From: Nilaparvata lugens
Lineage: Eukaryota > Arthropoda > Insecta > Hemiptera > Delphacidae
DNA: 64,000 nt
Reading direction: 5' to 3'
NCBI RefSeq assembly: GCF_014356525.2
Contig: NC_052518.1
Span: 28,584,655 to 28,648,654 of the forward strand
In this document: one piece after another, positions 10,843 through 39,014 of the stretch
How the letters are laid out: every line of letters starts with the position of its first letter
Numbering within the stretch: the stretch's first letter is position 1
Made by a program: the position numbers and the translations under genes
The notes under the pieces: model-generated
Database searches by the model: none
Seen by the model: the letters and a program-made list of their open reading frames with translations, nothing else
What the model was told of the DNA's origin: nothing

Positions 10843-11295
10843 TCAATCTGCATATCGCAGTTGATCTGCATGGCATCTTCTCATCATTTCCTCAACATTC
10901 ACTAGGTATGAGTATGGTCCATTTACTTGAACGATTTTTCCTTTTTTGTAGCCTTTGCCTGATCTGTCTAGTACCCATACGCCATCGCCCTCTCCGAACA
11001 CCTTTGTGTTGACTCTCGGCTTGCTGTTCCCTTGTCTAACTAACTCTTCGTCTACTCTGTCGTTAACATCTGGTAGTAATAGATCTATTTTGCAGCGTAA
11101 CTCGCAACCGAACATCATAAAAGCAGGTGTTTTTTCCGTTGCTCTCTTTGGGGATGTTCTATGAGCGAATAAAAATTTATTTAGTTTTTCTTGTAAGGTG
11201 CCAGTACTTCCTTTTGAAATTCCCATACGTTCTTTGAACGTTCGTACGCTCCGCCAATCCATTGCTTTTTGGGTGATATGGGGTGATACGTGCAT
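10843..11295 (-). pseudogene. Gypsy integrase C-terminal part, frameshifted
   Basis: 150 codons in a different frame from the 758-codon ORF. From residue about 20 they continue the integrase after the catalytic Glu: helices with H-R-T-S-P and T-P-A-x-M-M-F-G, then an SH3-like C-terminal domain (G-D-G-V-W-V, H-A-D-Q-L-R). One indel near 11235 separates it from the rest of pol. Confidence 0.85.
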
Positions 11296-13453
11296 GTTTT
11301 ATGTTCAGTTCTTTGCAGAAATTTTGGAATTCATACGAAGTCAGTTGAGGACAGTTGTCACTTACAATTATTCTTGGGTAGCCAAATTTAGAAAATAGAT
11401 CTTGTAATATATTGATCGTGGATTTTGTTGTGGTTGTTGACATGGGTATTACTTCGAGCCATTTCGATCTAGCATCTACAACAACTAACCACATTTTCCC
11501 TAAAAATGTTCCTGCGAAATCTATGTGGATTCTAGACCACACTTCTGTTGGAAGAGTCCATGAGAAAAGTGGCATCTCAACATCTCTGTTTCTGTTTTCT
11601 TGACATGCGGTGCAGTGTTTTACATGTTCCTCTAAATCTTTGTCCAGTCCAGGCCACCATACTTGGAATCGTGTTTTTCCTTTCATTGCTACAATTCCTG
11701 GATGACCTTCATGAAGAATTTGTAGTACTTTTGTTCTTAATCTTGTGGGTATGACTAAACGACCCCACCAGAGGAGTATGCCATTTTCAAATGATAGTTC
11801 TTCTCGTTTATTGTAATATGGTAGTAGTTCTTTGTTTACATTTGTATCTGTTGTCCAACCACTTTGGAGATAGTTTGTAACTTTTGCAAGTGTTGTATCA
11901 TGTTTTGTTGTTTCTTGTAAGCTGTTTGTTGATAATGGTATATCTTGAAATCGAAGGTGGAAAAGATGTGCTCTATTGTTTTCCCCTAACTTTTCGTTTT
12001 TTGACTTCAATACATTTTCCAAAGGAAACCTTGATAGCATATCCGCCGTTGCATTATCTGCACCGCTGTGATAATTTATTGAGTAGTCGTATGAGCTCAA
12101 AATTAAAGCCCATCTAGCAATATGGTTAGAAACAACTTTTGGAATAGAGTCATTTTCACCGAAAACTTTCACTAAAGCTTTATGATCAATACGAATCTCA
12201 AAGTGTCTGCCATAGAGAAACTGTTCAAAACGTGTTACTCCAAAAATTAAACCTAATGCTTCTTTTTCAATCACACTGTACCGTTTTTCAGCTTTGTCAA
12301 GTCGTCTTGATGTGAACAAAATTGGCCTTTCAGTACCATCAGTATATCTGTGAAAAAGAGCTGCACCTAATCCGACTTCACTTGCGTCTGTGGCAAGAAT
12401 TAGAGGAAGTGATTCATCATAATGAGCTGAAGTATCTGATGTTGTTAATAAATGTCTCAATTTTGTAGCGATTTGTTCATGTTTTTTATCCCAGTGCCAA
12501 TTTGCTCCTTTTTGAAGTAATTTGTGTAACGGAATGCACAGTGATTGTAAATGTGGAACAAATTTACTGTAGTAGTTGATTGATCCCAAGAAGGATCTTA
12601 GTTCTTTGACATTTTTCGGTGATGGCATATCTTCTACGGCTTTGATGTGTTCAGTTGTGGGGTGTATACCTGTTTGATCTATTCTGTGTCCCAAATAGTT
12701 TACTGATTCCTCAAACCATTTACATTTTGTGGTTTGTACTCGAAGTCCATTGTTTTCAAAACGTTTTAACACTTCCCTGACTCTGTTAATGTGTTCTTCT
12801 CTTGTGGGAGCTGTTATTATTACATCGTCTAAAAGACATGCAACGCCTTCCAAGCCAGCCAAGATTTGATCCATTTTACACTGAAAAGCTGCTGTTGCTA
12901 TTTTTATCCCAAAAGGAAGGCGTGAATATCTGAAAAATCCTTTATGAGTAGAAATAGTGAGATACTTTTGTACAGAAGTATCAACTTCCATTTGTAGATA
13001 TGCATCCTTCAAATCAATAATTGTGAATTCTTCCCCTCCTGTAAGTTTTGAAGTGATTTCTTCAAACCTAGGTAGGGGATAGTTGTCTGGACTTATAAAC
13101 TTGTTTATGGTGGTTTTAAAATAAGCACATATCCGGACTGCTCCTGTAGGTTTCACCACAATAACTATTGGTGAGGACCATGTGATTGGTTCTTCACTTG
13201 TGTTTACAGGTGATAGTACATTACTGTCTACTAAACGTTGTAGTTCCATTTCTACTGCTTTTCTTAAGGAAAACGGAACTGGACGTGGTTTTGCAACTAT
13301 TGGTATGGCATTTTTTGACATGTGGAAAAGTACCTTGCAGTTCTTTATTGTTCCCAGATTTGGATTGAAAACATCAGAAAAATCTGTGATTATTTTATTT
13401 ACCAAAACTGAGTTCTTTTTTTGTGGAGAGCTTATCATTTTTTTACTGAGCAT
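11177..13453 (-). CDS. pol: Gypsy pol: reverse transcriptase, RNase H, integrase core
   Basis: 758 codons. RT occupies roughly residues 50-240: I-I-D-L-K-D-A-Y, then L-P-F-G-I, then L-L-D-D-V-I in place of the usual Y-x-D-D. RNase H is about 340-460 (A-T-D-A-S, E-K-E-A-L, I-D-H-K-A-L, A-D-M-L-S-R). Integrase has an H-x3-H-x(n)-C-x2-C zinc domain (C-T-A-C, about 640) and the D, D, E core (I-D-F-A-G, S-D-N-C-P, N-G-L-A-E-R). The frame goes out just after the catalytic Glu near 11235; the rest is in 11295-10843. It copies RNA to DNA and integrates it. Confidence 0.95.
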   Translation of the reverse strand: MLSKKMISSPQKKNSVLVNKIITDFSDVFNPNLGTIKNCKVLFHMSKNAIPIVAKPRPVPFSLRKAVEMELQRLVDSNVLSPVNTSEEPITWSSPIVIVVKPTGAVRICAYFKTTINKFISPDNYPLPRFEEITSKLTGGEEFTIIDLKDAYLQMEVDTSVQKYLTISTHKGFFRYSRLPFGIKIATAAFQCKMDQILAGLEGVACLLDDVIITAPTREEHINRVREVLKRFENNGLRVQTTKCKWFEESVNYLGHRIDQTGIHPTTEHIKAVEDMPSPKNVKELRSFLGSINYYSKFVPHLQSLCIPLHKLLQKGANWHWDKKHEQIATKLRHLLTTSDTSAHYDESLPLILATDASEVGLGAALFHRYTDGTERPILFTSRRLDKAEKRYSVIEKEALGLIFGVTRFEQFLYGRHFEIRIDHKALVKVFGENDSIPKVVSNHIARWALILSSYDYSINYHSGADNATADMLSRFPLENVLKSKNEKLGENNRAHLFHLRFQDIPLSTNSLQETTKHDTTLAKVTNYLQSGWTTDTNVNKELLPYYNKREELSFENGILLWWGRLVIPTRLRTKVLQILHEGHPGIVAMKGKTRFQVWWPGLDKDLEEHVKHCTACQENRNRDVEMPLFSWTLPTEVWSRIHIDFAGTFLGKMWLVVVDARSKWLEVIPMSTTTTKSTINILQDLFSKFGYPRIIVSDNCPQLTSYEFQNFCKELNIKHARITPYHPKSNGLAERTNVQRTYGNFKRKYWHLTRKTK

Positions 13454-13947
13454 ATTTCAGCACCGGGAGGTAAGGGTAGATTGAATTTGAGGACCCAATT
13501 AAGTCCAAACAAAGGTATGTCATCTTTCTTTATAACAATTACTGGTAATTTCCTGGAGTCACCAAAAGCATTGACATTTATATGTGTTTCTCCAAGTGTT
13601 TCAATGTCAATCCCTGTGTATGCCGTGAGGTTTCTTGTTGGTTTTAAAATGGGACTTCCAATTTTTTTCCATAATTTCTCGTTAATAACGCTGTAAGTGG
13701 CACCTGGATCATACAGCATTTTCACTGTGTTGTTGTTGAGTTTAACGTTCACCATTACTTTACAGCCTTTTTCCAGAGTTCTTATATGTTCAATATCGGA
13801 AAGTGACAGGTTGTCATCTTCTATTGATAAATTTTCGCGGACCTGATTTATCTGTTTGTCTTTTACAATTGTAGCGTTCCCTACTTTTAGACATGCATTT
13901 GTTATTTGCAGTGCACATGACACCATCAGAATGTCGCCGGTTTCCAC
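13435..13947 (-). CDS. Gypsy protease region
   Basis: 170 codons overlapping gag by 134 bases in another frame. The aspartic-protease active site appears as Y-D-P-G-A-T, where the family usually has D-S/T-G-A, so proline replaces the catalytic-loop Ser/Thr; activity is doubtful. Further on are hydrophobic strands ending in I-P-L-F-G-L-N-W, typical of the flap-to-C-terminal part. It is followed, with overlap and frame change, by RT. Confidence 0.8.
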   Translation of the reverse strand: METGDILMVSCALQITNACLKVGNATIVKDKQINQVRENLSIEDDNLSLSDIEHIRTLEKGCKVMVNVKLNNNTVKMLYDPGATYSVINEKLWKKIGSPILKPTRNLTAYTGIDIETLGETHINVNAFGDSRKLPVIVIKKDDIPLFGLNWVLKFNLPLPPGAEICSVKK

Positions 13948-14629
13948 AACAAAGACAATGTGTATTTTTGTTCAATTTTAGAGTCGATTTCTTTTCATAT
14001 TTTTCGTTGTACTTTTGAGGGTTAGATTCCATTGCCTGATGTTTATCAGAAATTTTTACTCTATTCAAATTTGTAGAACTGTTTTTAATTTCTTGCTGTT
14101 GAAGGTTAACGGTTTCTAGCAATTTTGCTGATTCTACTATTTTTGTAAAAGTTGTTTGTGTTGATGCATGCATTCTCAATAACTCAAGTTGCCAACTATC
14201 GTTGTTGATGCCTAATATGAACTGATCTCTTAAACGTTCATCCAGGTTATCACCAAAATTACAATTTCCTGCGAGAAACCTTATATCTAGTTCAAATTGA
14301 GTTATGGTCTCACCTTCATTCTGGAATCGTCGAGAAAAACAAACTCTCTGGGATAGAGGTGCTTGTGGTTTCGTGTAGTATTTGTTTAAGACTTCTATCG
14401 CATCATTAAATCCAATATTGTTTATGGGAGTCGGATGCATAGAATCGAAAACTATCTTGAATGGTTGCGGTCCCAGATTCTCAAGTAGTAAGTCTCGTTT
14501 TTTTCCTTCGTTTTTGATGTTTCCATTTCGTAGGAAAATCTTGAACCTTTCGTGCCAATATATCCAATCTTCGGTTGTTCCATCGAATGGTTGACATTTG
14601 CTGTGATTTTTATTTACCAACTGCGCCAT
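13814..14629 (-). CDS. gag: Gypsy gag protein
   Basis: 271 codons starting at the ATG at 14629, the first one after the 5' LTR. The N-terminal two thirds are the capsid-like region of insect Gypsy gag (W-x-x-W-x-E-R-F near residue 25 and a conserved F-x-x-R-F-Q-x-E-G-E-T block near 100). Close to the C-terminus is a zinc-knuckle-like C-x-C-C-G-x(4)-H-x(4)-C. The second knuckle seems to be read in the frame of the protease ORF, so a frameshift lies near 13870, either programmed or a mutation. It forms the retrotransposon particle. Confidence 0.85.
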   Translation of the reverse strand: MAQLVNKNHSKCQPFDGTTEDWIYWHERFKIFLRNGNIKNEGKKRDLLLENLGPQPFKIVFDSMHPTPINNIGFNDAIEVLNKYYTKPQAPLSQRVCFSRRFQNEGETITQFELDIRFLAGNCNFGDNLDERLRDQFILGINNDSWQLELLRMHASTQTTFTKIVESAKLLETVNLQQQEIKNSSTNLNRVKISDKHQAMESNPQKYNEKYEKKSTLKLNKNTHCLCCGNRRHSDGVMCTANNKCMSKSRERYNCKRQTDKSGPRKFINRR

Positions 14630-14695
14630 GTAGAATATTAGAAATAAATAAGTTTCAAAGATTAATACTCAACGTGTGTAATCTCTATTAAAACA

Positions 14696-16028: not shown

Positions 16029-16640
16029 CTACTGATGCTTAATAAAATTGGAAGTCTGGCACAACTTATGAAAAGGATTTTTCTGACTTGTTTTTGATAT
16101 ATTTATTTCCAATATATTTCTCAAACACCAGTCATGAATCACAATCAGATCCCGTTGCAAGAGAGAGCAATCCTCCAGACTGGAAATAGGTCTGAAAAGT
16201 TTTTCATCGTCTGCAAAAAGCAAAATACTAGATTCTTTAATATGGTCAGGCAGATCATTTATGAGTAGAAGGAACAGCAAGGGACCAAGGTTTGATCCCT
16301 GTGGAACTCCAGAAGAATTGGTAAAGTAAAGAGATCTATGATTATTAAAACCCACATAAGACATCCTATCAGTTAGATAACTCTAAAAAAATGTAATCAA
16401 ACTATCATACAGACAAAACCTTTTCAATTTTTTCAACAAATTCCCAAAATCCACCTAATCAAAGGCTTTTTTGTAATCTAAATAGATAACATCCATATGA
16501 CCATGCATGTCTAGCTGCGAAGAGACAGATTGGATGAATGCATCTCTGCTCTGATTCATCTGAAATTCGACCATTAGCACGTTTCATGCATAATCTTGTT
16601 TCACCTTGGAAAAAATGGTTGTGAAGTAGAGAACACTCTC
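16029..16640 (-). pseudogene. Non-LTR reverse transcriptase, 3' half (left flank of the Polinton-like element)
   Basis: Minus strand, two or three frames: M-D-V-I-Y-L-D-Y-K-K-A-F-D (RT motif with the first catalytic Asp) near 16495-16465, then G-V-P-Q-G-S near 16310 and L-L-F-A-D-D near 16215 with the catalytic Asp pair. It stops near 16029, so the thumb and 3' end are missing. Orientation and RT coordinates continue what is lacking from the fragment at 27728-29338, as expected if one LINE was split by the element in between. Confidence 0.8.
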
Positions 16641-16730
16641 TCACATTGAAATAGAATGTAGCTATCTATTTCTCATGCAATTTCTCCCAAGCAATTTGCA
16701 TCATGAAATCGGTTAGAGATTGATGTGATT

Positions 16731-17762
16731 CTAACTTGATGGTTTTAGAACATTCCTGTAGATACTTAAACCCATTTTATCGGTAATTAAATCACCTACT
16801 TGATCTTCTGTCAAATTATGCTGTTTTGCCTCAATCCAATTCATATGAAAGCTAACTTTTGCATAGTTCTGAACTATTTGGTAGGCTATTCTATGTATAA
16901 ATAAAGTGAGATAATCGGTGAATGCAGGTGAACATTATAATCTTGTGACTTTATCATTCTCAGTATTTTTAATTGAAGATGCTATTTCCTCACGAATTGA
17001 TTTGACTGTAGCTTGTAATTCATCTTTCTTAATAAATGCTTGCATTTCACTACTCAGATCATTTTTCAATACATAAGTTTCGCTAAACGTAGATAGCAAT
17101 GTATTTAAATCGTTTTTTGAAACAAATTGTTCAATCCCCTCCATAAGATTTGTCTTTATTGTATTAGTCATTGCCGATAATCGATCTTCAAACTCTTGTT
17201 TTGTTATAACAATGTTATTCAATGCCTGCACAGTTTTATCCAAATATTCCTTATCAACCGATAATGAATGAGTTTCATTTACTCTAGTAAAAAGTTTTGT
17301 GCTAAGCTGTTTCAATCTGGTATTTAGATAATTTCTATCTAATACTTGCAAATTTTTAATCTTGTCTGAGATAACTTTCAATTTCTCATCCAAATAATTC
17401 TTGTCAACTTTATTATCGTTGATCGTATTCAAGTGCGATCTGAATATCTCTGTTGTTGATTTGAGATCATGTAGAGAATTCTCTAAATTGATAGATTTCT
17501 CTTCAACTCCCCTAACGATATTGTCAGATAACTGTTGTAATGTACTGAAGATGTGTTCCTTTTCGATCTTGTTCAATCCAATATTCTTAACTATATTAGA
17601 TAATTGTGAATCTAAATACGAACGCAGAGATTCACTAACACCCTGTTGATTAATTACCTGGATTATTCTCTCACTAAAACTGTCAAGATCTGGTTCATTC
17701 CATACAATCTCTTTCTTCGCAGTGACTCTCTTGCTTTTACCTCCGAATCTGTGCACGCTCAT
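16731..17762 (-). pseudogene. Long coiled-coil protein of the Polinton-like element
   Basis: Open from 17792; the best start is the ATG at 17762 (M-S-V-H-R-F-G-G), 7 bases after the stop of the preceding gene. A TAA at 16935-16937 ends a 285-codon frame, but the same frame stays open for another 67 codons to a TAG at 16731-16733, so the intact protein was probably about 340 residues. From residue about 125 of the longer frame a motif [V/I/L]-x-K-[N/E/D]-x-[L/F] recurs about seven times (near 129, 151, 179, 196, 224, 241, 254) within heptad-like helices. This looks like a trimeric stalk or fibre, but function is unknown. There are no membrane segments. Confidence 0.6.
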
Positions 17763-17769
17763 TCTGCAA

Positions 17770-18752
17770 CTAAACAATAATTTTACCTTCACGTAATTCT
17801 TCTATAATTGATGCAATCTCAACATCATGACCCAAGTGTCCAGCAAGTTTTGATGATTTTAATAAATGAAGTCTCTGAACCAATTCATCATAGTTGTCAT
17901 AATATTGGTAAATTCTATTGCTAGAAGTATTTTTTGCAAATTTCAATAACCCTGAACCTCTCTCACTCGCTTTTTCAACAGGAAACAGCATTTGAATTAA
18001 GCAAGACTTTACACCAGTGTTACGTTTCACATATCCTCGTCTATCTAAATGAACTTTTGTTATTGATAAAATCTTCTTGTATTTATTTAGATCTTTTTCA
18101 TCAAAGAGATATGAATTTGGTCTTGGGGCAAATAACAGTTCTAATAGACCATGTGTAATTTTTTGTTATCAATATAAAAGAAGTAGTTATCAAAGCTAAC
18201 AACCATCTCACCCATAAAATATAATTTTTGGTCAGAATCATAGGAAATTCCATAAGGAATCGAGTTATCCAATTTTTCACTATGAAATGTATACAAATAT
18301 TGTGCAAGCACTTGATTCTTTATCTTCTTTATTTTGCTGCTTGTATCACTCTCAAGCCTAGTTGAATTAAATATACTTGAATCGTTCATGCTTAGATCTT
18401 TTTCAGCTGCTGATGGTGATGCAACTTCTATTGTTTCACTAATATCATCATGTTTTTCTCCTAGATCCATACTTTCTTCGTCTTCATCTTCTTCTTCTTC
18501 TTCTTGTTCCTCCTTTTTTGGTATAAAACTCTGATCGGATTGGTGAGAAGATCTAGTTTTCCCCATTTCAACTAGAGGTGTGATAATCAGTTTAAAAAGT
18601 TTTTCTCTGTAATCGTCAGATTGCTTTTCAAAATGTACAATGCTTCTATGTTTGTCTCTAATAACTTTCCTCAATTTCTTAATCTTATCGATTAGAGCAA
18701 TGCTAGCATTTTGTCTTCTACGAGACATCCTCATTCTTTCACTGCTACTCAC
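17770..18752 (-). pseudogene. DUF8207-like protein, one frameshift
   Basis: The N-terminal 203 codons (18752-18141) have a basic helical start, a run of about 12 Asp/Glu, and a Tyr-Gly-Ile ... D-N-Y-F-F-Y-I-D strand pattern. After a single-base shift in an A-run near 18150-18165 the frame continues as G-L-L-E-L-L-F-A-P, D-E-K-D-L-N-x-Y and an H-L-D-R-R-G-Y stretch to the stop at 17770. This pattern matches a conserved domain of many insect Polinton-linked proteins that I recall as DUF8207; function unknown. The start lies 3 bases after the ATPase stop, and the next gene starts 7 bases after its stop, so the three are tightly packed. Confidence 0.65.
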
Positions 18753-18755
18753 TCT

Positions 18756-19490
18756 CTACTGAATGTCAATAAAGTTATCCAGACCCTGCCTATATTTTCC
18801 ACTATTAGCTACACATTCAGTCATAATAGTAAGAAAACTATGCTTCTTAGAATTCCACACATTTGAACACAATTTACTGAAATCTCTGAAGCAAATATCT
18901 TCACCCACATAGTCTCTATGTATTAATTTGAGTGATAATTGATCAATTTTGAATATAACAATCATATTTGCATTATCTCTGGTGAAATGTTTTTGTGTAG
19001 CACCATAACTTTGAATTAAACATGCTGTATCAATATTACAATGTCTACCCATAGTAAAATAATCCCTTATTTGAGGTGTGTGACTAAGTTGTAAATCGTC
19101 AAATATAACTAGAGAATATTGTGGTATATTGTTTGGATGTGGAATGCTATTGGGAATATCATTCACGTGAAATTCAATACCTTTCATTTTTGAAAAGACT
19201 TTTCTTAAAAACAAGTACTTATCTTGATATTGACTTTTAGTATTTAAATAAATATGTTTAAATCTCAATCCATTTTTGGAAAAAATCAAGTTGAACAATA
19301 AATTCGTTTTACTGCATGCAGATGGGCCCACAATGAGAATTCTAGCGTTATGTGGTATCAATGCCCCATTCTTACACCATACAGGCTTTTCCTCTTGTGC
19401 AATTAACTTATCGAAATTTACAATGACAAGTTTGTTCATGAGAAAGTGAGATATACAAACAGAGCAAACTGTTTCATGTGTCTGGTTCAC
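18756..19490 (-). CDS. A32-like packaging ATPase
   Basis: 244 codons; the Met 19 codons in (M-N-K-L-V-I-V-N-F) is the more likely start. It is a P-loop ATPase of the FtsK/HerA type found in Polintons and large DNA viruses, where it pumps DNA into capsids. The Walker A loop is G-P-S-A-C-S-K-T, with Ser where the invariant second Gly should be. Walker B is S-L-V-I-F-D-D near residue 135. A downstream S-Y-G-A-T-Q block resembles sensor motifs. The frame is otherwise unbroken, and length is normal for the family. The Walker A change probably inactivates it. Confidence 0.8.
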   Translation of the reverse strand: MNQTHETVCSVCISHFLMNKLVIVNFDKLIAQEEKPVWCKNGALIPHNARILIVGPSACSKTNLLFNLIFSKNGLRFKHIYLNTKSQYQDKYLFLRKVFSKMKGIEFHVNDIPNSIPHPNNIPQYSLVIFDDLQLSHTPQIRDYFTMGRHCNIDTACLIQSYGATQKHFTRDNANMIVIFKIDQLSLKLIHRDYVGEDICFRDFSKLCSNVWNSKKHSFLTIMTECVANSGKYRQGLDNFIDIQ

Positions 19491-19680
19491 TCGCTAATGA
19501 AGCGTTTTCTAGGTGACACACATAAATGTACTCACCCATTCAACATCTAGACACGTACCACATGCTACTCCTTCACACTTCTCTATGACAAAATGAGAAA
19601 TGAAAGAGCGAACATTCAATTCAAGTTGTTTTTATTTAAAAAACACACACACAATGTAAAGAATATTACAATGATTATCC
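19491..19680. other. Spacer between ATPase and integrase genes
   Basis: AT-rich, no gene seen. It leads into the 69-bp tandem repeats. Confidence 0.5.
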
Positions 19681-19905
19681 ACAACAGATGTGGATAGATA
19701 ATTATACAATGTACATTATTTACATCATATGATCTTACTCTAATTATTTACAACAAATGTGGATAGATAATTATACAATGTACATTATTTACATCATATG
19801 ATCTTACTCTAATTATTTACAACAAATGTGAATCGATAAAATTATACCATGTACATTGTTTACAACATATGATCTTACTCTGATTATTTACAATCTTACT
19901 CTAAT
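19681..19905. repeat. Three tandem 69-bp units at the integrase 3' end
   Basis: Units start at 19681, 19750 and 19819 with ACAACARATGTGRATMGATA and contain TACATCATATGATCTTACTC. Units 1 and 2 are almost identical; unit 3 has several changes and one extra base. A partial fourth unit overlaps the integrase stop (19896). Confidence 0.92.
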
Positions 19906-20884
19906 AAGTTCTCTTGATTTATGAATGATGGTTGTGGAAATCCAATACATTTCACAAGCAACTTATCCTTATCTCGCCTCAATATTTTTTCTATCAAATA
20001 AACATCTCTTTCAGATTCATTCAAATTTGTTTTTTTAATTTCTTCTTGATAAAACCTACCCTGTATTATCTCACCACTAAGATCTTCTAATGAGTAAGTG
20101 ATAGGTCTTGTGGGATGTATGCTCACAATTCGGAAATATTCGGGTGACCAATTCATTAGATATTTTTTATCAAATATCTGTTTCTTTTTAGAAATTCTCA
20201 CAATATCACCTAGCTTATATTTTGGTTTCAACACTTTTAATTTGAATTGTCTATTAAATGCAGAGTTTAGTGATTCTAAAATGCATTTACAATATTTTTT
20301 AGTTACATCTTTAGGTCGCATTCCAATGGAACTGTGTACTGTATTGTTATAATCATCTACAATATTTTGTAAGTTATAAACCCAGTTTTTACTCCCACGT
20401 TCAGTTAAAGATCGATATATTTTTGATTTTATTGTACGATTAAATCTCTCAGCGATACTAGCTTTCTTATCAGTAAAAACAGAATAATGCTTGATATTAT
20501 ACTTATCTAACAAATCTTTCACATACTTATTAAAATACTCCTTCCCTCCATCTGTCTGGAAAAAATGCATATATGTTTATTCTTACAAATAATGGGTTCG
20601 AGTGCATTATAAACACTTTGTGCAGTCTTATTCTTTGAAGGTATACAATGAGCGTACTTAGTAAAACAATTAATAACAACTAAAATATAATGATATCCTT
20701 TATTGAATATAGATAAGCTACCCATCTCAATCAGATCTGATTGATATAAATCGTTCTCATTCTTCAACTCATATCTACGTGTGGGGTAATTTACACATGC
20801 AGCAGAGTGAAGCTCTGCTGCTAATTTTGCTCTAATATTACTCCTTCTTCTTCTTCTTCTTCTTCTTTGTGTGAAGACACGCAT
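19896..20884 (-). pseudogene. Polinton integrase (rve family), one frameshift
   Basis: Two overlapping frames, 20884-20519 and 20570-19896. The first carries the start of the catalytic core (Y-Q-S-D-L-I-E-M, first Asp) after a run of Arg codons encoded by CTT repeats, which is probably not part of the original protein. The second carries T-D-G-G-K-E-Y (second Asp) and S-I-A-E-R-F-N (catalytic Glu), then helices with N-x-x-V-H-S-S-I, and a C-terminal SH3/chromodomain-like part (K-Y-K-L-G-D-I-V-R-I; F-Y-Q-E-E-I). The indel lies near 20570, between first and second Asp. It inserts the element into the genome. Usual length for the family is restored if the frames are joined. Confidence 0.88.
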
Positions 20885-20941
20885 GAAACAGAATTCAATG
20901 TGTTGGTCACTACCTCATTACACACACACTGATCTGTGCAA

Positions 20942-23900
20942 TCAGTTTGCTATTTTGTAGTGACCGAATGGTAATGTATCGATTCCGTTCTCTGCAATAA
21001 AGCGCTTGTCATCGAATGGGCTTAAACAAACCTTTGTGCATTCATTTTGATGTATGTTATGATTGAAGGATCTCAACATATTACATTTTTCTATATGTTG
21101 GCATCATTCAATCAAACATTTCTTATACAAATCAAAACTAAGTTTTCTATTTTTTACATGTGTCTTCACACCTTTTGCTACACACTTATTTACAGTTTCC
21201 TCCTTCTCATTATTTACAAGATATGAATACAATTTCGCCCGTAATCCCAGGAAAGATTTTAAAGGAATTGAAGCTGCCTCATCCTTAAATTTCCCTACAA
21301 CTTTATTCCTCTCATTGGAGAAGCATTTGTGCTCAGCTGGGTAATTTGAAGTGTCAAACAGTTCTAGATTTTCTCTTATCAATTGGTAGATGTCAGGTGT
21401 CTCCAACAATAAGAGGAAGCTATCTGTATCAGTCATACAAAGCTGGATGCATTGCCATGGTATGATTTTTGCAATTTACAGTAGAAAAAATCATACATGT
21501 GTAGTTTACTCAAATCCAGGATGCAGAAACCTGAATAGATTGGCCTATTCATTTCTAGTTCCAACTTTCATGAGAAAACTGCAATCACATCCGAACTTAT
21601 TATCTGCCAGCATTTACATAGGGGATTTGAAATGTACTTATCTAGACGCTTGGCATCTGTGATAATTTGAACATTACAATGATGGCGACTATTCTGTAAT
21701 GTCTTCCCATAAATTAGGTTGCTCATCTGTTTGAAGAATGAGACTTCAAATTTATTTTTCGCGGCTTGCCTATTACAGGTATTGAACTCAATGTAGTTCT
21801 TCAACCAAGGTGATTGGGAAAAGCTAATGACACAATGTACTTTTGTTAATTGCAATCCAAGTTGAAGGTACAGCTTCAAATTCATGTAATGAACAATGTA
21901 CCTCTCTCGATCAAAAAGTGTGTTCATGAGTTTTTTAGTCAGAGTTTGACCGTTCTCATTGGTTTGGTACTCAGAGAACAATTTGCTAGGAGGAATTTGA
22001 TGAAGTGGAGTGAGAGGGAAATTGGCATGCATATCATGTAACTCCTGGGGGTACTTGAGATCACATTCAATTACATAACCAGTTTCAGATTAACTCTTCA
22101 AATTTGTAAAGTCAAGAGCATGGATTTCTTCCTCTGAGAGGAACTTGAAATTTCCATAAGGTAAGAATTGATTCATAGAGTTGGCATACAAAGAATTACA
22201 ATCTATATAAAGCAAATAGTTACTTGGTTTTGTGGGATCGTATGTGTCAGGGATGTGTTTGTTATTGGCTTCGCAATAACGCTTGCCAATAAACGAAACA
22301 CCACCACCACGCATTCCTGATTCAAACATTAGATGTATATCAGGATTGCTAATCAATTGGAGTTCAACCCGGGTGAACTTTAACATACAATTCCAAGTGT
22401 AATGAGCAATCAAAAGAAAATGAGTCACATTGAGGCCATATGACCTAAAAAGTGTTGACCTCATTTCTTCAAAAACCTCAACTAATAGCATGATGTCTAG
22501 GCACAGATAGAAATCATGATACTCGCCGAGAGATTTCAACTTGAATGTTGAGAACACTCTTTGTGCATGCTCATATTCGTTGGGGGAGAGGGGTGTATCG
22601 TTAAGATCGTTATAAAAACATTCTACTGGAGGGAGAGAAGTCTCAGCAAATTTTTCAGGGCAAGATATGTACAAATAGGGATATACTCCTTTTTTTAACA
22701 AGAGTTGCCTATGTTCGAGATCGGGGTTATTAAATACTGAAAACAGACGTTTCAACTTCGATTCCATATCTGTACTATCTACCAAGTTGTGCACTAATAC
22801 TTCTAAGAATTCATTCATAAATCTATATGAATCGAAAAACTTAATTTTTCCCACTGTCAATGTCAAAACTCTTTCTGATGTATTGGTGATACAGGAAATT
22901 TCTTTTTTACATTTTCAGAGAGCTTTTAGAATAAAATGACTGTCAAATCCGCTAAAATTATGGAAGTAACAGCTAATTGTATCGTCAGTTCGAGTATTTA
23001 AATTACATGACACATGAGCAGCACACAAAAACTTTCCATTTTCATGTGCATGAAGGCGTACCTTTGTGTCTGTTTCGGTAAAAACTTCATCACAAAGGCC
23101 GCACTTATCAGCATTTTGAAATTCGTGTTGCTGACACTCACTTAAATGCTCCATCGGAATTTCACATTTTATATCCGCACTCAATAAATCGCCCAGTTCG
23201 ATTATTTCCTTGAGAAATTTCTCCATGATCTTTTCATTGATATTACTTGATCTATAGAGTACTGGGCCGTACACGATATCTCCATTCACATCAATTACAA
23301 CGAAACAATACCCGCACGGAATATGACGCACCGTTTTCTTGGTGTAACTTCTGGTGATAGGTACCATCCTCACAATCAGATTTGTTACCATTCATATTCA
23401 CAACAAATGTTTCCAAATCAGTGTAGATTGTATACTTTTTCTTCAAAGTCAAACCGAGTTTTTTAAATTTGATTGTCTCACCTTGTTTTGGGTACGAAGT
23501 TCTCTGAGACTGGAACTTTGAACAAAGCTCTAGATGTCTCATCAAATTTACTTTCCCATCACAATTTTTAGATTTGTTTGATGTAAATCTGTGAAAACAG
23601 AAATTACAAACATCTACTTGATGAGCATTTTTTGAAAGGTGAGAAAGAAGACGTGACAATCCATTTTTCCCGTTCGCGGTGTTAATTGAACAAAAATGTG
23701 TTTTTCCTGCATCACCTTTCAACATTAAAAGATTAATTTGGTATTTACACATACGGAATATGCTTGTTCAATAGGGGAAAAACTTTTTGTTGTCATACAC
23801 AATAACATGAATTTCGATGTCTGTATTAAGAATTTCAAATTTCTTTATGTCGCGATCGGTGGTTGGGAAATTAACTCCACGAGTGTTCAGCCTGTGAGCA

Positions 23901-24535
23901 AATTTGCTCAAATATTTCACCGTTAATGTCAGCCTATTTGGTTTCTGGTGGAAATAGGCTAGAACACTCCACAGAAAACACTTTTTATCAGAAAGATTTT
24001 TGACATTGATAACACATTTCTTATTCTTAATGAGCTTGGGTGTTTGAATATAACTGCTTGTGTATATTGGATTATATCTAATCAAATTTACATCAAGCGA
24101 GTCAATCTTCTTCAACACCCACCCACTCCCAAATCGAACAAAGTTATCGAATGAACTTAAAATTTTCCTAACTGCTAACATAAAATGTTCATTCAATTCA
24201 TCATAACTCTCCAAGATGTTCAAGCCTATGGCCGAGTAGCTATGTAGATTCACAATGGATGAAACAGCTTCGGATTCCTCTGATTCTAAAACTACCATCT
24301 TTTACAATAATACATTTAATACTAAGAACCATTTCACATTTCCTTCAAAACGTGCAGCGTGTTCTCTTATTATCTCAAAAACACGAGCTTTTGAGTTTTC
24401 AAGCACATTTTCAATGTCAGGTGCTACGTTTTCAAAGGAAATGCGATGGCAAATTGCACCTGAACTCATGCCTCTAACCCTGCGTTCTCTGGTGTGCTCC
24501 ATCTCTGCTACTAGTGGGGTGCTGAAAACAAACAA
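20942..24535 (-). pseudogene. Polinton DNA polymerase B, multiply broken
   Basis: About 1,200 codons in pieces: 24535-24302, 24298-23768, 23752-23291, 23391-22915, 22866-22090, 22032-21568, 21436-21104 and a tail to the TGA at 20942. In-frame stops are at 24302 (TAA), 23768 (TGA), 22915 (TGA), 22090 (TAA) and 21104 (TGA); frameshifts lie within 23291-23391 and near 21600. Exonuclease motifs: Y-T-D-L-E-T (exo I), H-N-F-S-G-F-D (exo II). A Cys/His cluster starts C-G-L-C near 23100. Polymerase motifs: D-C-N-S-L-Y (A, about 22190), K-Q-M-S-N-L-I-Y-G (B, about 21715), D-T-D-S (C, about 21428). This is the protein-primed replicase; every recognised catalytic motif is still readable. Confidence 0.92.
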
Positions 24536-24632
24536 AGAATATATTACTATAGCATAGAATTAGATATAAAAACAAGTAAACATTAATCTAAAAATCAGTT
24601 GTGATTTGACAAGCTGCAAGTACAGTGCAAAA
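24536..24632. promoter_or_regulatory. Divergent start region of the Polinton-like element
   Basis: About 100 bases of AT-rich DNA between the polymerase start (minus) and the BIR gene start (plus, 24633). Transcription of both gene sets must begin in or near it. No specific motif can be named. Confidence 0.35.
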
Positions 24633-24983
24633 ATGTTATCTCAGGATCAGATTTTCATGTATGAACGATTGAGGTTAATAACATTTGATAATCATTGGAA
24701 ATTAGAATCGAGTCTGTTGTCACCTCAAAATATGGCTAAACAGGGTTTTAAATTTGTGCGAACACCTGACGTTGTTCAATGTGTGTTTTGTACAGTATAT
24801 TTAGAAAATTGGTTGTAAACAGATGATCCTAGTAAGGAACATGAGCGATGCAGTCCAAATTGTGGATGGCGCAAAGAAGATAATATTTCATGTGAAGAGG
24901 AGAATTTCGATAATAATATTCTACGACAATATGAAGAACAAGTTTTAGATATAGATAGATATGCTTTGATGTATGTATCATAA
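24633..24983 (+). pseudogene. Single-BIR (IAP-like) protein with one in-frame stop
   Basis: Frame from the ATG at 24633 to the TAA at 24981, 116 codons, broken only by a TAA at 24816-24818. It has the BIR layout: R-L-x-x-I-T-F near the start, W-K, a Q-G-F-K-F strand, then Cys and His residues spaced CX2CX16HX6C when counted across the stop codon, with the W-x-x-x-D-D-P element in the right place. This is the zinc-binding signature of inhibitor-of-apoptosis proteins. About 35 acidic residues follow; there is no RING finger. In viruses and insects BIR proteins bind caspases or their activators. Cargo status is inferred from its place in the element. Confidence 0.75.
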
Positions 24984-25026
24984 TTTAAAAATAAAGAAAA
25001 TTATTGTAACATTGAGTGTTGACATT

Positions 25027-25470
25027 GACCTCTCCCCCCCTTCTCCTCATTCCTCTCTCATTTTTCCTCTCCTGCTAAACGAGTGGAGGAGGAGGACAAA
25101 GGAGGAGGAGGAGGAGGAAGAGGAGGAGGACAAAGGAGGAGGAAGGAGGACACAGCAAATCAAAGGTTAGTTAGTTATTTGATTGGTGTGTGATCATGTG
25201 ACAGGGGGAGATGGAGTGAGGGTCGTTGAAATAGCCTTCGTTGAAAGTATAGTAAGGTGATTTCTTACCTATATGAGAAGAAAACATGATCTATAGGGAT
25301 ACAGTGTGATCTTGACGTCGAGGATGACTTCTTCTACTATCAATCAAGATGTAGTACACCTAAACCACAGGAGGAGGAGGAGGAGAACGGAGGACAACGG
25401 AGGAGGAGAACGGAGGACAAAGGAGGACGATGGAGGAGGAGGAGGAGGAGGAGGAGAAAACAGAGCTTGT
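25027..25470. repeat. GGA/TCC purine-rich low-complexity tracts
   Basis: GGAGGA-type runs at 25083-25155 and 25369-25458 with about 200 bases of unique sequence between. Strongly purine-biased on the plus strand, able to form G-quadruplex or triplex structures. Open frames rich in Arg, Glu or Gly here are artefacts. Confidence 0.9.
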
Positions 25471-26212
25471 CATCAAACAGAAGGAAGAAACTCTCCTGTA
25501 AAAAATTAGCAACAGTCGACATGCATTGGTTCAAGGGAAATTCTAATCAAATTATTGTGAAAGAAATCGGAATCGTAGATCAGCTAAATAGCTTTGTTGT
25601 GTTGCATTTCAAGTCGCCATTTGCAAAGTCGGAATTGAATGCTAAATTGTGTAAGCAAGCAACATGGGCAGAGAACAATTATCACAAAATATGCTGGGAA
25701 GATTGTCATTTTATTTATACAGAGACAAATTATTGATATCTTATCTTGAAGGATATGATAAAATCTACACAAAAGGTACAGAGAAAGCTAAGTTTCTTAG
25801 AAGGTTACACAAAAACGTATGTTGTTTACCGGATGAAATTGAGAAACCAAATTTTAACTACTTCACAAGTTCATGGTGTTATAATGCATGTGAAATTCAT
25901 CATCATAATCTGAGTGGGCAATGTGTGCTCTTCGCCGCTCTTCATTATCATTCATTGATAATGAAAAATATGAACTTGTCTCCAAGTTTCATGTGCAAAA
26001 ACAATAGAATGCTTAGCATGAAAAAATGTAAATTCTATTCAAATACAGAAAATAAATACTTTGCAAGATATGGCTTTTTCTATAACGGACAAGAAATTAA
26101 ATGTGTTTATTGTATGCAAGCATTGAGATATCATACTGCTTGTGTATGTTGCATTGGTGGGAAGGGACAGGAGCCATTTAATTTCTCTATATTAGTACCG
26201 ACATATGTATAG
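25467..26212 (+). pseudogene. Polinton-linked insect protein with BIR-like C-terminal half, one frameshift
   Basis: Two overlapping frames (25467-25736 and 25664-26212). The first has V-D-M-H-W-F-K-G followed by I-V-K-E-I-G-I, and the second has K-I-Y-T-K-G-T-E-K and, later, C-x-x-H-H-H-N. This arrangement matches a multi-copy insect protein family I know only as hypothetical; the D-x-x-x-F-K-G / K-E-I pattern suggests an RNase H-fold nuclease (inference). The C-terminal 70 residues look like half a BIR domain: a Y-G-F-F-Y-N-G-Q-E strand followed by K-C-V-Y-C, then the frame departs from BIR before the His and last Cys. So it may be a fusion, or two damaged genes. Confidence 0.5.
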
Positions 26213-26230
26213 TTTCTTCATTCGCTCATC

Positions 26231-26506
26231 ATGGACCCGTGCAAGTGGATGCAAGCTGATAGTGAATTGGAAATGAGGTTAGAACAGTGTATTGATTGGT
26301 ATGATGCTTGTGAAATTGCAATTAAACATTCAACTCATGAAAATCATCATTTGATGAAACAACTAAAAGACATTTTCTTAAACACAGTGAATTTGAACGA
26401 TATAAATGATTATCTATGCTATTACAGACCCCATAAACTGTCTGTGAGTAAACTAATAAAAATTGAAGAGGAAGTGATGAACAATTGTAGTGAATTGTGT
26501 AAATAA
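26231..26506 (+). CDS. Unknown 91-residue protein of the Polinton-like element
   Basis: An unbroken frame 18 bases after the previous stop, starting M-D-P-C-K-W-M. It is helical in character, with mixed charge and seven Cys and five His residues, but I see no known metal-binding spacing. No signal peptide or membrane segment. Unbroken state and packing suggest a real gene. Function not recognised. Confidence 0.45.
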   Translation: MDPCKWMQADSELEMRLEQCIDWYDACEIAIKHSTHENHHLMKQLKDIFLNTVNLNDINDYLCYYRPHKLSVSKLIKIEEEVMNNCSELCK

Positions 26507-26651
26507 ATTTCTAGTGTATACTCGATTGTTTTCATTTCCATTGTACCTGCAATGTCTAGGTTTAATCGTTCAGTAACGCTTTGTTAGTTGAGCTGTAAAG
26601 ATCTCACATGCGTTGAAGCTCAATTCTATTTATAGGAGTGTGTAGTATAGT

Positions 26652-27041
26652 GTGCAGATACAAGTTCATTCAAATAGTTTCTTATCACGTTTTACCTGTA
26701 CATACACTCAACTGAAAAATATGGTTGATTGTTATAGCTTTTCAAAGTTCAAGAAACTATCTCATCTCTTGATGCCAATTTCATTCAATGAATTTGATCT
26801 AATTGCAAAGAATATTAAATTTTCAACGGGTGATGAGGTGAGCGATCTTGCATTAACAAAAACAGAAAATCTCCACTTTCCAATTTTATCTGAAATTTTT
26901 GAATTACTTGATATACTAGAAACCGGACATTTGCATTATGGTTGTTCAAATAATGATGAATCATTAGCTATTGTTAATAATTCTAATGATCTCTGGAAAT
27001 GCTTATATGACATTGCCAATAAAAAATGTAAAGGATCATAG
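26652..27041 (+). CDS. Unknown ~107-residue protein of the Polinton-like element
   Basis: An open frame of 129 codons; the ATG at 26721 (M-V-D-C-Y-S-F) is a more likely start than the first one. It is rich in Leu, Asn and Lys, probably globular and helical, with no motif that I recognise. It is the last open frame before the simple repeats that end the element. It could be a chance ORF. Confidence 0.35.
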   Translation: MQIQVHSNSFLSRFTCTYTQLKNMVDCYSFSKFKKLSHLLMPISFNEFDLIAKNIKFSTGDEVSDLALTKTENLHFPILSEIFELLDILETGHLHYGCSNNDESLAIVNNSNDLWKCLYDIANKKCKGS

Positions 27042-27423
27042 ATCACTCTCTAGAGAGTTTAAAGATATATGTCTAATTCAAAACTTATGTGTGTATTTGG
27101 ATATACTAGTTCATTCTATGCATTAGTTATGATTGAGGAAACATTAAAAATATAATGTTCATTGTGTGTACAACCCACAATTCTGCATGTGCTTGACAAC
27201 GTTGTCAAGTACATGTTTCAGTTAAATCTGAGAGTAAGATATTCATTTCACTTAAATCTGGCAGAAGTTCATTTCACTAAAATCTGTCAGTAGATTGCCT
27301 CTCTCTCTCACACATATCTCTCTCTGCTATAAATCATCATTAAATAGACCATGACTAAATGTAATTGAGCTTGACTGAATGTAATTGGGCATGACTATCT
27401 ATAAATGAAATAGAGCATAACAT

Positions 27424-27600
27424 AAAGAAAGAGAGAGAGAGAGAGAGAGAGCATCATTGTTATCATCATCTTCTTCTTCTTCTTCTTCTTCTTCTTCCTC
27501 CTCTCCTTCTTCTTCTTCTTCTTCCACCTATCCTTCTTCTTCTTCTCCTTCTTCTAGAGAGAGAGAGAGAGAGGGAGAGGTTCTTCTCCTTCTAAGGAGC
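27424..27600. repeat. GA and TTC/CTT simple repeats
   Basis: (GA)n at 27428-27450 and 27555-27574, and TTC/TCC-rich tracts between 27468 and 27556, followed by a G-rich stretch to 27680. Confidence 0.9.
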
Positions 27601-27727
27601 GGGGGAGGGGGCAGGGGAGGTGCGGAAGGAGCAGGGGAGGTGGGGGGTACATAGGATGGGTGGTGGGAAGGGGGAGGGGGGGAAAAGTCGTAAAAAAGTC
27701 TCGCAAATTCAGCAAATAGAAGCTACT

Positions 27728-29338
27728 AACAGGTGTCACCCTTGCAGCTTTCCATTTTTTAGGATATTTATTCGAACTCAAGGACAAATTGAAGATAAAT
27801 TGTAAAGGTTGAATAAGAAAATCTCTACAACCCTTTATAATGTATGCTGGTCCACAAGATCTAGTTGTTTAAGTTTATTTATAGCTGAATTTACTCCATT
27901 TTCAGAAATATATGAAACTTGTAATATGTCAAGATGAGATGAGAAAATGCTGTCATATGATTCGTTATTGTTATTATGTTGTATGTTATTACGGTTGTTG
28001 CTATTATTGTAAACAGATGAAAAATAATCAGCAAAAGCCTGCAGTACTTCCCGATCGTTATACCTGCACCCATTCCACTCAAAACACTTTGAGTCTGATC
28101 TAGATTCTTTTTTACTAGCAACATAGTTCCAGAAGTGTTTAACATTTGAATTTATGTTATTTTGTAAAGATTCTATATAATTTTGTTGGGCTATGTTGAT
28201 TTCACATTTTATTGAAGCTCTCAATTCCTTGAATTTGTTAAAATAATATCCCGAAAAAGATTTTTTCCGTGCACATTTATTTTTTAATTAAATCATCTGG
28301 ATACCTAATGTTTCTAGTAAACCAAACCAGATACTTCGATTTAATAATATTTTTATTTTTGGGCACATGCAAAGCAAAAGCATTATTCAATAAATCGTAA
28401 AAATAGTCTACAGCGAGATCGACATCATTGAATTATTGATAAACTCTATGCCAATCTGAATCCCCAAGTGTGAGATATAATTCATAGAAGTTTGCTTTTT
28501 TTTAAATTATAATACTCAATACTCAAAGGAGGATGCAACAGGCTCTTTTTAATCAAAAAACTAATATCTAAGCTTGGGTGATGTGGATCTTCAGCAAGCA
28601 GAGGGCTTGTTTCATGCAAAACAATCAGAGGTAGATTACTCAAAACAGATCAAGAGTTTTAGCATTGGCATTTAAAACATTATTAAAGGATCTTAAGTTG
28701 AATAAACACATGCAATTCATAAGTCTGGCATATTTACTAGGACTACCAACAAAATTAAAACTCTTGAACCATTTATTTCATTCAGAAATTTCAAGTCACC
28801 CAATATTAATAAATCATGTGAAAAAATATTATTATCACTTTCAATAAAATCAAAGAAGTCACAGTAATCGAGAAGACTAGATTCAGGAGAGAAATAGACA
28901 ACATTGATAAAGATTATGGTTATCTTGCATAGAAAACTTGACAAGTAAAGATTCATAGTGCGCTGTCGCCTGGGCATGAATGAGTCGGGAATGCCAACTG
29001 TTTTTCACTGCACAAAGTAGTTTTGCGATATCATTATCAGTTTTGATTCAATGAATGGCCAAGTTTTCATCTCTTCTTATCTTCATGTTACTCGGTCTGT
29101 CAACCCATAGAAACTTAAAGTTGATCTGATTTTTCACCCTTTTTGTTTTAGCAAATAAAATTCTTCTAGCCGGACATAGAGACTGGTTTATGTAGATGGG
29201 AGTATCCATTAGCATGCCTATATGTCTTGTAGACAGAGTCCTCTTCACCCGTCGCCTCTCCAACATCTTCTCCCTAATAGCTCGGCGAACAAAGCTTAAG
29301 ATCATCCCAGGAGATGGCCTGATTTGATTATACATCAA
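27728..29338 (-). mobile_element. Non-LTR retrotransposon, 5' part (right flank of the Polinton-like element)
   Basis: Minus strand, several frames: ORF1 C-terminus (29338-29048, Y-I-N-Q-S-L-C-P and F-K-F-L-W-V), endonuclease (28980-28560, with L-L-I-L-G-D and D-P-H-H-P), linker (28560-27850, with F-W-N-Y-V-A-S-K-K near 28120), and the very start of RT (K-K-W-K-A-A-R-V-T-P-V at 27760-27730). It ends abruptly inside RT motif 1 at about 27728. The following part of RT is found in the same orientation at 16640-16029. Confidence 0.8.
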
Positions 29339-31211: not shown

Positions 31212-31311
31212 CATATTATCCTACTTTCCAAACTTGCTTCTGTTTCTTTCCTCATTTATTATCCTACTTTCCAAACTTGCTTCTGTTTCTTTCCTCATTT
31301 ATTATCCTCCA
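31212..31311. repeat. Exact tandem duplication of ~49 bp
   Basis: Two head-to-tail units containing ATTATCCTACTTTCCAAACT and TTCTTTCCTCATTT. It lies just left of the inverted LINE segment. Confidence 0.9.
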
Positions 31312-37881: not shown

Positions 37882-38051
37882 AATTTATTTAAACGTGACA
37901 CAACTCAACAAAAATGTGCTCTTCTTGTTATTTTGGAAGGGAATAAAAATAAGCAAGGTTTATATATGAAGTTCAATTAAAAGAAGAAATTAAAAATAAT
38001 GTAACTATTGCAGAATATTCCAGTAAAATAGGTAATCATGACAAGGCTATA

Positions 38052-38993
38052 GTGAATCATATTTCTAAGAAGATTGACAAAGATTCTGAATCCAGTTTCT
38101 CAAATCATTCAGAAGCAATGAATTGGCATAGGAAATTAGGTCATATTGGTTTCAAGAATCTTGAAAAATTATCCAAAATTTCAGTAGGAATTCCATCAAA
38201 TGTATTGGATATTTGTGAAGAGGAATTTTGTAATATTTGTCCAAAAGCCAAACAAGTAAGAAAACCTTTCAATTCCATAAGAAATAGAGCATCAAATTTT
38301 TTGCAAGTAATTCATTCAGATTTATGTGGTCCTATTGATCCACAAACTCATGATGGTAGAAATTATTTTTTGACATGTGCTGATGATTTCAGTCATTTTT
38401 GTAAAGTCTATTTGTTAAGATCTAAGAATGAAACTGCTACTTATTTGAAAGAATATGTATATGAAGCTGAAGCTCATTTCAATCTCAAAGTTGCTAAAAT
38501 CAGGTGTGATAATGGTGGGGAATATGTATCTAATTGCTTGAAAAATTGGTGTAAATCACGGGGAATCGTGCTAGATTATACTATACCCTATTCACCCCAA
38601 CTAAATGGAACTGCTGAACGAATGAACAGAACATTAATGGAAAAAGCAAGAGCATTAATTTTTTATTCAAATTTACCCAAAAGTATTTGGGGAGAGACTG
38701 TATTAACATCTGCCTATCTTATAAATCGTAGTCCAACTGTTAGTATTGATACAACACCTGCTGAAAAATGGTATGGTAGAGAACCGGATTTGAGTAAATT
38801 AAACATATTTGGTTCTAAAGTACATTCAAAAGTATTAGGTCCACTTAAAAAACTTGACAGCCGTAGCAAAGAGGCAATTTTTGTAGGATATGCCCCAAAT
38901 GGTTATAGATTATGGGATCCAGTGAAAAAAAATATTTTCATCTCGAGAGATGTTTTGTTTAATGAAAAAGAAGAAATTTTCTATTCAAATTAA
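38052..38993 (+). CDS. Copia pre-integrase and integrase
   Basis: 313 codons. GAG-pre-integrase zinc domain: W-H-R-K-L-G-H-I-G near residue 25 and C-N-I-C near 60. Integrase core: H-S-D-L-C-G (Asp 1, about 97), C-D-N-G-G-E-Y (Asp 2, about 155), N-G-T-A-E-R-M-N (Glu, about 193), all intact. A C-terminal V-F-V-G-Y-x-P-x-G-Y-R-L-W segment is typical of Copia. The frame ends at a TAA (38991-38993), and the same frame continues as RT. Confidence 0.93.
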   Translation: MNHISKKIDKDSESSFSNHSEAMNWHRKLGHIGFKNLEKLSKISVGIPSNVLDICEEEFCNICPKAKQVRKPFNSIRNRASNFLQVIHSDLCGPIDPQTHDGRNYFLTCADDFSHFCKVYLLRSKNETATYLKEYVYEAEAHFNLKVAKIRCDNGGEYVSNCLKNWCKSRGIVLDYTIPYSPQLNGTAERMNRTLMEKARALIFYSNLPKSIWGETVLTSAYLINRSPTVSIDTTPAEKWYGREPDLSKLNIFGSKVHSKVLGPLKKLDSRSKEAIFVGYAPNGYRLWDPVKKNIFISRDVLFNEKEEIFYSN

Positions 38994-39014
38994 ACTGTAA
39001 AAGACCAAAATGAA

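What the first reader, a model, noticed from the sequence alone, without database searches (positions are those of the whole stretch)
16650..27727. Polinton-like element carrying BIR (apoptosis-inhibitor-like) cargo and no recognisable capsid genes
PolB, integrase and packaging ATPase identify the element (known Polinton set). On the opposite strand, starting about 100 bases from PolB, are a single-BIR gene with the exact CX2CX16HX6C zinc spacing and a second ORF with a half BIR. I recognised no major capsid, penton or adenain-like protease, though a packaging ATPase is present. A capsid-poor mobile element with anti-apoptotic-type cargo would be unusual; it could protect host cells during replication (inference).
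Basis: partly seen in the sequence, partly recalled or inferred. Interest (0 to 1): 0.8.

Follow-up and report, generated by a model that had tools for sequence, protein, structure and literature searches.

The report
Decayed Polinton with broken BIR gene
This is an old, mutated copy of a virus-like mobile element, probably in an animal genome; beside its DNA-copying genes it carries a cell-death-inhibitor-like gene that is broken here but has an intact close relative elsewhere, and no capsid gene can be recognised in it.

Summary
A Polinton-type element of about 11 kb (roughly 16656-27727) is really there: PolB, integrase, A32-type packaging ATPase and two unidentified genes on the minus strand, apparently inside a LINE. 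PolB (6 in-frame stops, 2 frame shifts), integrase, X1/X2 and X3 are also broken, so this copy can protect no cell. An intact 104-aa BIR protein, 92% identical, exists in a database; it diverges about as much as the nearest ATPase (94%) and X3 (93%) relatives, as expected if BIR travels with the element. Linkage was not shown: no contig was fetched and the own-genome search did not complete. The 'half BIR' is weak and depends on trimming. No capsid or protease family was recognised in the pieces scanned, but X1-X3 are unidentified and could be virion proteins. Printed work already mentions anti-apoptotic (and/or oncogene-like) homologs in most mammal-associated adintoviruses, and Polintons that lack capsid proteins. 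A new member of a known kind, modest interest.

The parts
16656..27727 (.). whole element, about 11.07 kb, apparently inserted in a LINE
   Evidence: left flank has a reverse transcriptase (RVT_1); the right flank matched no Pfam family and is taken as LINE by eye; weak left TIR; two of three tried flank joins keep one frame
27698..27727 (-). right terminus, begins AGTAGC
   Evidence: placed by eye where the flank frame stops; a 20-base pattern of it occurs once in the window at up to 3 mismatches
16656..16683 (+). possible remnant of left terminal inverted repeat (start by eye, end from the alignment)
   Evidence: anchored alignment score reached by 1 of 854 tiles (the tiling includes this zone) and 1 of 1000 shuffled termini
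20945..24559 (-). PolB, broken: 6 in-frame stops and 2 frame shifts; the stop at 24302 may lie ahead of the true start
   Evidence: PF03175 23.2 bits on 22093-22914; frames and stop counts; extent assigned by eye
19896..20914 (-). retrovirus-type (rve) integrase in two frames
   Evidence: PF00665 and PF13683, both below cut-off; frames
18759..19439 (-). A32-type packaging ATPase, open over full length; one nearly invariant P-loop residue is changed
   Evidence: PF04665; nine relatives; 94% to P0001 over 227 of 227 residues; alignment A1
17770..18755 (-). X1 and X2, overlapping frames, probably one broken gene of unknown function (joined by eye)
   Evidence: ORFs; no credible family match
16734..17771 (-). 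X3 of unknown function, one in-frame stop
   Evidence: P0010 (341 aa, 93%) and P0011 (49%) are unbroken; stop count
24633..24983 (+). single-BIR gene, broken by an in-frame stop at 24816-24818
   Evidence: PF00653 2e-11 on the first piece; 92% to intact P0012 over 104 of 104 residues
25467..26212 (+). U1, perhaps one frame-shifted gene (by eye); half-BIR-like stretch near 26040-26130
   Evidence: weak PF00653 match only when trimmed; none at full length
26231..26506 (+). U2, 91-aa ORF of unknown function
   Evidence: ORF; no credible family match
26646..27041 (+). U3, ORF of unknown function
   Evidence: ORF; no family match

Best explanation
A decayed copy of a Polinton (Maverick)-type provirus that integrated, apparently, into a LINE. 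PolB, integrase, packaging ATPase and X1-X3 form one minus-strand module; the stretch between PolB and the right terminus is an accessory region that holds a single-BIR gene and unidentified ORFs. In working relatives the BIR gene most likely makes a small RING-less BIR protein that blocks host cell death while the element replicates (inferred). This copy makes none, because the gene is stopped inside the domain (shown). The absence of capsid genes is most likely loss in this copy or its close lineage; the packaging ATPase would then be a leftover, or would serve capsids supplied by relatives (inferred).
For: ATPase, rve and PolB matches. BIR match with an intact relative. Similar divergence of the nearest relatives: BIR 92%, ATPase 94%, X3 93%. 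Left TIR remnant, and two of three flank joins in one frame. Decay counts. Accessory regions beside core modules are described for vertebrate Mavericks, of which 96% of loci were degraded and whose intact elements measure 12.7-24.6 kb (PMC8097293, sections 6 and 7); this one is shorter.
Against: PolB and rve scores are below the Pfam cut-offs. The right flank has no Pfam match, so the LINE reading there is by eye. The TIR is very short (vertebrate Mavericks: 46-1,447 bases) and the target-site duplication is imperfect. No second copy was seen, and the context of P0012 is unknown. X3 runs to within about 75 bases of the left end, so if that end is genuine there is no scar of a lost capsid module there.
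Confidence: 0.66

Rival explanations
1. The lineage never had, or long ago lost, jelly-roll capsid genes and moves as a transposon; the ATPase has another role.
For: If both ends are right, the six listed gaps between genes sum to 1,882 bases, the largest 686, so a full-size capsid gene could hide only in X1-X3 or U1-U3. Polintons that lack capsid proteins are mentioned in print (PMC4981718, one passage).
Against: A packaging ATPase is kept, open over its full length, with nine relatives. No intact sister element was seen.
Confidence: 0.17
2. X1/X2 or X3 are virion proteins of an unrecognised kind, so the element is not capsid-less at all.
For: They lie directly after the packaging ATPase on the same strand. 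X3 has two unbroken relatives. PMC11071296 (abstract passage) says that known replication modules were found paired with unrecognisable sequences that may be novel virion architectures.
Against: No credible family match. X3 is modelled as nearly all helix, but at very low confidence (pLDDT 39). X2 could not be modelled (pLDDT 39); X1 was not modelled.
Confidence: 0.3
3. The left part of the element, with the capsid module, was deleted; the left TIR match is chance.
For: Only 14 to 23 bases of the right end align there; two searches found no left TIR; the flank-joined LINE seems to lack a few residues (by eye).
Against: The match sits at the expected place and orientation and is rare.
Confidence: 0.25
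4. The BIR gene is host sequence captured or inserted beside a dead element, not element cargo.
For: Only one relative was found, on a 1163-base contig of unknown context.
Against: It lies between PolB and the right terminus, 73 bases from the PolB frame, and diverges from its relative about as much as the ATPase and X3 do.
Confidence: 0.1

Closest known systems
Polintons / Mavericks (Eupolintoviridae; adintoviruses)
   Same: PolB, rve integrase and A32-type ATPase; terminus beginning AGTAGC, near the published (AGT)2 motif of vertebrate Mavericks; an accessory region beside the core genes (PMC8097293, sections 6 and 7)
   Different: no recognised major or minor capsid protein or protease; integrase beside PolB instead of in the capsid module; shorter than the intact vertebrate elements; very short TIR
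Adintoviruses with anti-apoptotic homologs
   Same: a virus-like element with integrase and a gene of anti-apoptotic type (PMC11071296, discussion passage)
   [quoted passage not shown] this copy is broken
IAP / BIRC proteins
   Same: a complete BIR domain in P0012 (72.7 bits), best solved match NAIP, third BIR
   Different: single BIR, no RING or other separate domain found in its 104 residues
Polintons lacking capsid proteins
   Same: PolB-bearing element without recognised capsid genes (PMC4981718, one passage)
   Different: this one keeps a packaging ATPase; not compared element by element

Membership tests
Polinton / Maverick | protein-primed PolB | tested here: inconclusive
   DNA_pol_B_2 23.2 bits against cut-off 25.8 on one of the eight pieces scanned; terminal-protein and vOTU parts not tested
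Polinton / Maverick | rve integrase | tested here: inconclusive
   PF00665 22.6 bits against cut-off 32.6; PF13683 20.1 against 26.5
Polinton / Maverick | A32-type packaging ATPase | tested here: met
   PF04665 34.4 bits against cut-off 22.8
[quoted passage not shown]
   no match in the scans made; a weak test, since no dedicated capsid models were used and X1-X3 are unidentified
Polinton / Maverick | minor capsid protein and adenain-type protease | tested here: inconclusive
   same scans, no match; same limit
Polinton / Maverick | terminal inverted repeats and 6-base target-site duplication | tested here: inconclusive
   weak left TIR; AATAGA against AACAGG, 4 of 6, the best of four offsets printed
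IAP (BIR) protein family | BIR domain | tested here: met
   PF00653 on the window piece and on P0012; the window gene is broken
IAP (BIR) protein family | RING domain, as in baculovirus IAPs (recalled) | tested here: not met
   P0012 shows only BIR and an overlapping zf-C3HC match
IAP (BIR) protein family | inhibition of cell death | not testable with these tools
   needs an experiment

The most novel reading that the evidence does not exclude
A lineage of animal Polintons that has given up jelly-roll capsids, keeps a packaging ATPase with an unknown set of late proteins (X1-X3), and carries a dedicated single-BIR protein, so that a cell-death blocker is standard equipment of a capsid-poor mobile element.
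Probability: 0.15. Interest if true: 0.6.

Novelty: new member of a known kind. Interest (0 to 1): 0.33.

Why it matters
If the BIR gene is shared by intact sister elements, Polinton-type elements would be vehicles for moving cell-death inhibitors among animals, beside the anti-apoptotic-type genes already reported for mammal-associated adintoviruses. The X1-X3 genes next to the packaging ATPase would then be candidates for an unrecognised virion type.

Tried and rejected
So no second copy outside the window was looked at; inside the window none was found.

Related loci: 8 of 8 viral-contig scans and one prokaryote scan confirmed no relative, so gene order in relatives is unknown. Integrase, PolB, X2 and BIR were scanned as single sequences, which finds close relatives only. 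X1, U1, U2 and U3 were not searched in the protein database (its three searches went to ATPase, X3 and BIR).

Structure: X3 on a three-row alignment gave pLDDT 38.9 and X2 alone 39.3; both too poor, so no fold search was run. Solved-structure search of X2 found nothing; U1's first part one chance-level match; its second part XIAP at E 0.013.

Rejected: a functional BIR in this copy (in-frame stop). Weakened: my first view that the left end has no TIR at all.

Papers: the main adintovirus description (10.1093/ve/veaa055) is not held and was not seen. Searches near BIR, IAP or apoptosis in Polintons or adintoviruses: 2 papers; 0; 1; 0; 0; 4; 1. PMC8905726, PMC2836289, PMC11067908, PMC9341512, PMC6505742 and PMC4061559 were seen only as listings with the start of the abstract, so I make no claim that BIR in Polintons is unpublished.

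Full report
What is there. Between about 16656 and 27727 the window holds an element of about 11.07 kb. On the minus strand, in order, lie PolB (24559 to 20945), an rve integrase (20914 to 19896), an A32-type packaging ATPase (19439 to 18759), X1/X2 (18755 to 17770) and X3 (17771 to 16734). On the plus strand, between PolB and the right end, lie a BIR gene (24633-24983) and ORFs called U1, U2 and U3. Pfam supports the ATPase above its cut-off and the integrase pieces and one PolB piece (of eight scanned, nine in all) below theirs. The assigned PolB frames hold 2, 3 and 1 stops where the other two frames over the same spans hold 36-39, 48-66 and 16-21; so it is a once-real gene that has decayed. 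The extent of PolB, and the pairing of X1 with X2 and of the two U1 frames, are my reading by eye. The host is not known from any call; that it is an animal is inferred from the kinds of element present.

Ends. The right terminus (reading AGTAGC inward) begins where a frame that I read by eye as a LINE is cut at 27728; no Pfam family matched that right flank (two pieces). Left of 16650 lies a reverse transcriptase (RVT_1 at 3.6e-11 on 16032-16382); the short piece next to the junction (16458-16583) gave no reverse transcriptase match. Three joins of the flanks were tried: two (cuts 16650 and 16656) leave one frame, with stops of its own, and one (16651) does not; one join in three would do so by chance. 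A plain search found no inverted copy of the terminus, but an alignment anchored at the terminus found a weak one ending at 16683. Its score was reached by 1 of 854 tiles of the window on both strands (the tiling includes this zone; which tile was not printed) and by 1 of 1000 shuffled termini. I had seen the match before I set up that test, so its rarity is somewhat flattered. The bases outside the ends, AATAGA and AACAGG, agree at 4 of 6, at the best of four offsets.

The BIR gene. The first piece (24633-24815) matches PF00653 at 2e-11; the second (24819-24983) continues the profile at 14 bits, E 0.074, below the cut-off. The database search of the first piece gave one relative, P0012, from one candidate: 104 residues, unbroken, 55 of 61 and 41 of 42 aligned residues identical to the two pieces, BIR at 3.6e-20 and no RING. 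Its best solved match is NAIP, third BIR. In that alignment the residue four before the last zinc cysteine is Cys in P0012, as in NAIP BIR3, where NAIP BIR2 has Trp; I recall that this Trp helps to line the IAP-binding-motif groove in XIAP, so an ordinary anti-apoptotic mechanism is not assured.

Does BIR belong to the element? By position yes. By divergence, the nearest relatives of three genes differ alike: BIR 92% over 104 residues, ATPase 94% over 227, X3 93% over 341. That is what one related element would give, but the three come from separate short contigs (longest 1163, 1357 and 1657 bases) and from two different sources, so linkage is inferred. The 'half BIR' in U1 gave no match at full length and 16.4 and 18.6 bits when trimmed, below the cut-off of 22.9, with XIAP at E 0.013. 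Of the 27 window pieces scanned, only the BIR gene's two and the two trimmed U1 pieces matched BIR, so it may be a real relic, but it is not shown to be a working domain.

Capsids. None of the scans named a capsid or protease. The six listed gaps between genes sum to 1,882 bases, the largest being 686, so a full-size capsid gene could hide only in X1-X3 or U1-U3. X3 has two unbroken relatives and a mostly helical but very low-confidence model. So 'no recognisable capsid' stands, and 'no capsid' does not follow.

How it works. Shown: gene content, decay, intact relatives of three genes. Inferred: protein-primed replication and rve integration, as in Polintons; a BIR protein made from the strand opposite PolB to delay host cell death in intact relatives. 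This copy does none of it.

Known work. Vertebrate Mavericks have accessory regions beside two core modules, most loci are degraded, and end motifs of the AGT type are common (PMC8097293; sections 6 and 7 read, other passages seen). [quoted passage not shown]). Polintons lacking capsid proteins are mentioned in PMC4981718 (passages). PMC11071308 (passages) describes the vOTU domain in Polinton PolB; I did not test for it. PMC8363768 (passages) describes Drosophila-associated adintoviruses, one with homologs of capsid, protease and FtsK proteins. PMC12567637 (passages) gives the family name Eupolintoviridae.

Verdict. A decayed member of a known class, with an uncommon accessory gene whose intact relative deserves a follow-up.

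Noticed in passing
19663-19893: Three tandem copies of a 69-base unit lie between the integrase and the ATPase (90% and 61% to the first copy without gaps).
   Followed up: no
25010-25480: GC-rich (0.476 against about 0.33 around it) GGA-repeat stretch between BIR and U1, somewhat like the low-complexity stretch at 27420-27700; possibly a rearranged subterminal region.
   Followed up: no
16029-16650 and 27728-28287: Two parts of what looks like a decayed LINE into which the element is inserted; only the left part has a Pfam match (RVT_1).
   Followed up: partly
10843-14668: Minus-strand LTR-retrotransposon-like polyprotein frames, one of 759 codons (named by eye).
   Followed up: no
37953-40772: Copia-like integrase and reverse transcriptase in two long adjoining frames (named by eye).
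   Followed up: no
31214-31299: Two exact tandem copies of a 43-base unit.
   Followed up: no
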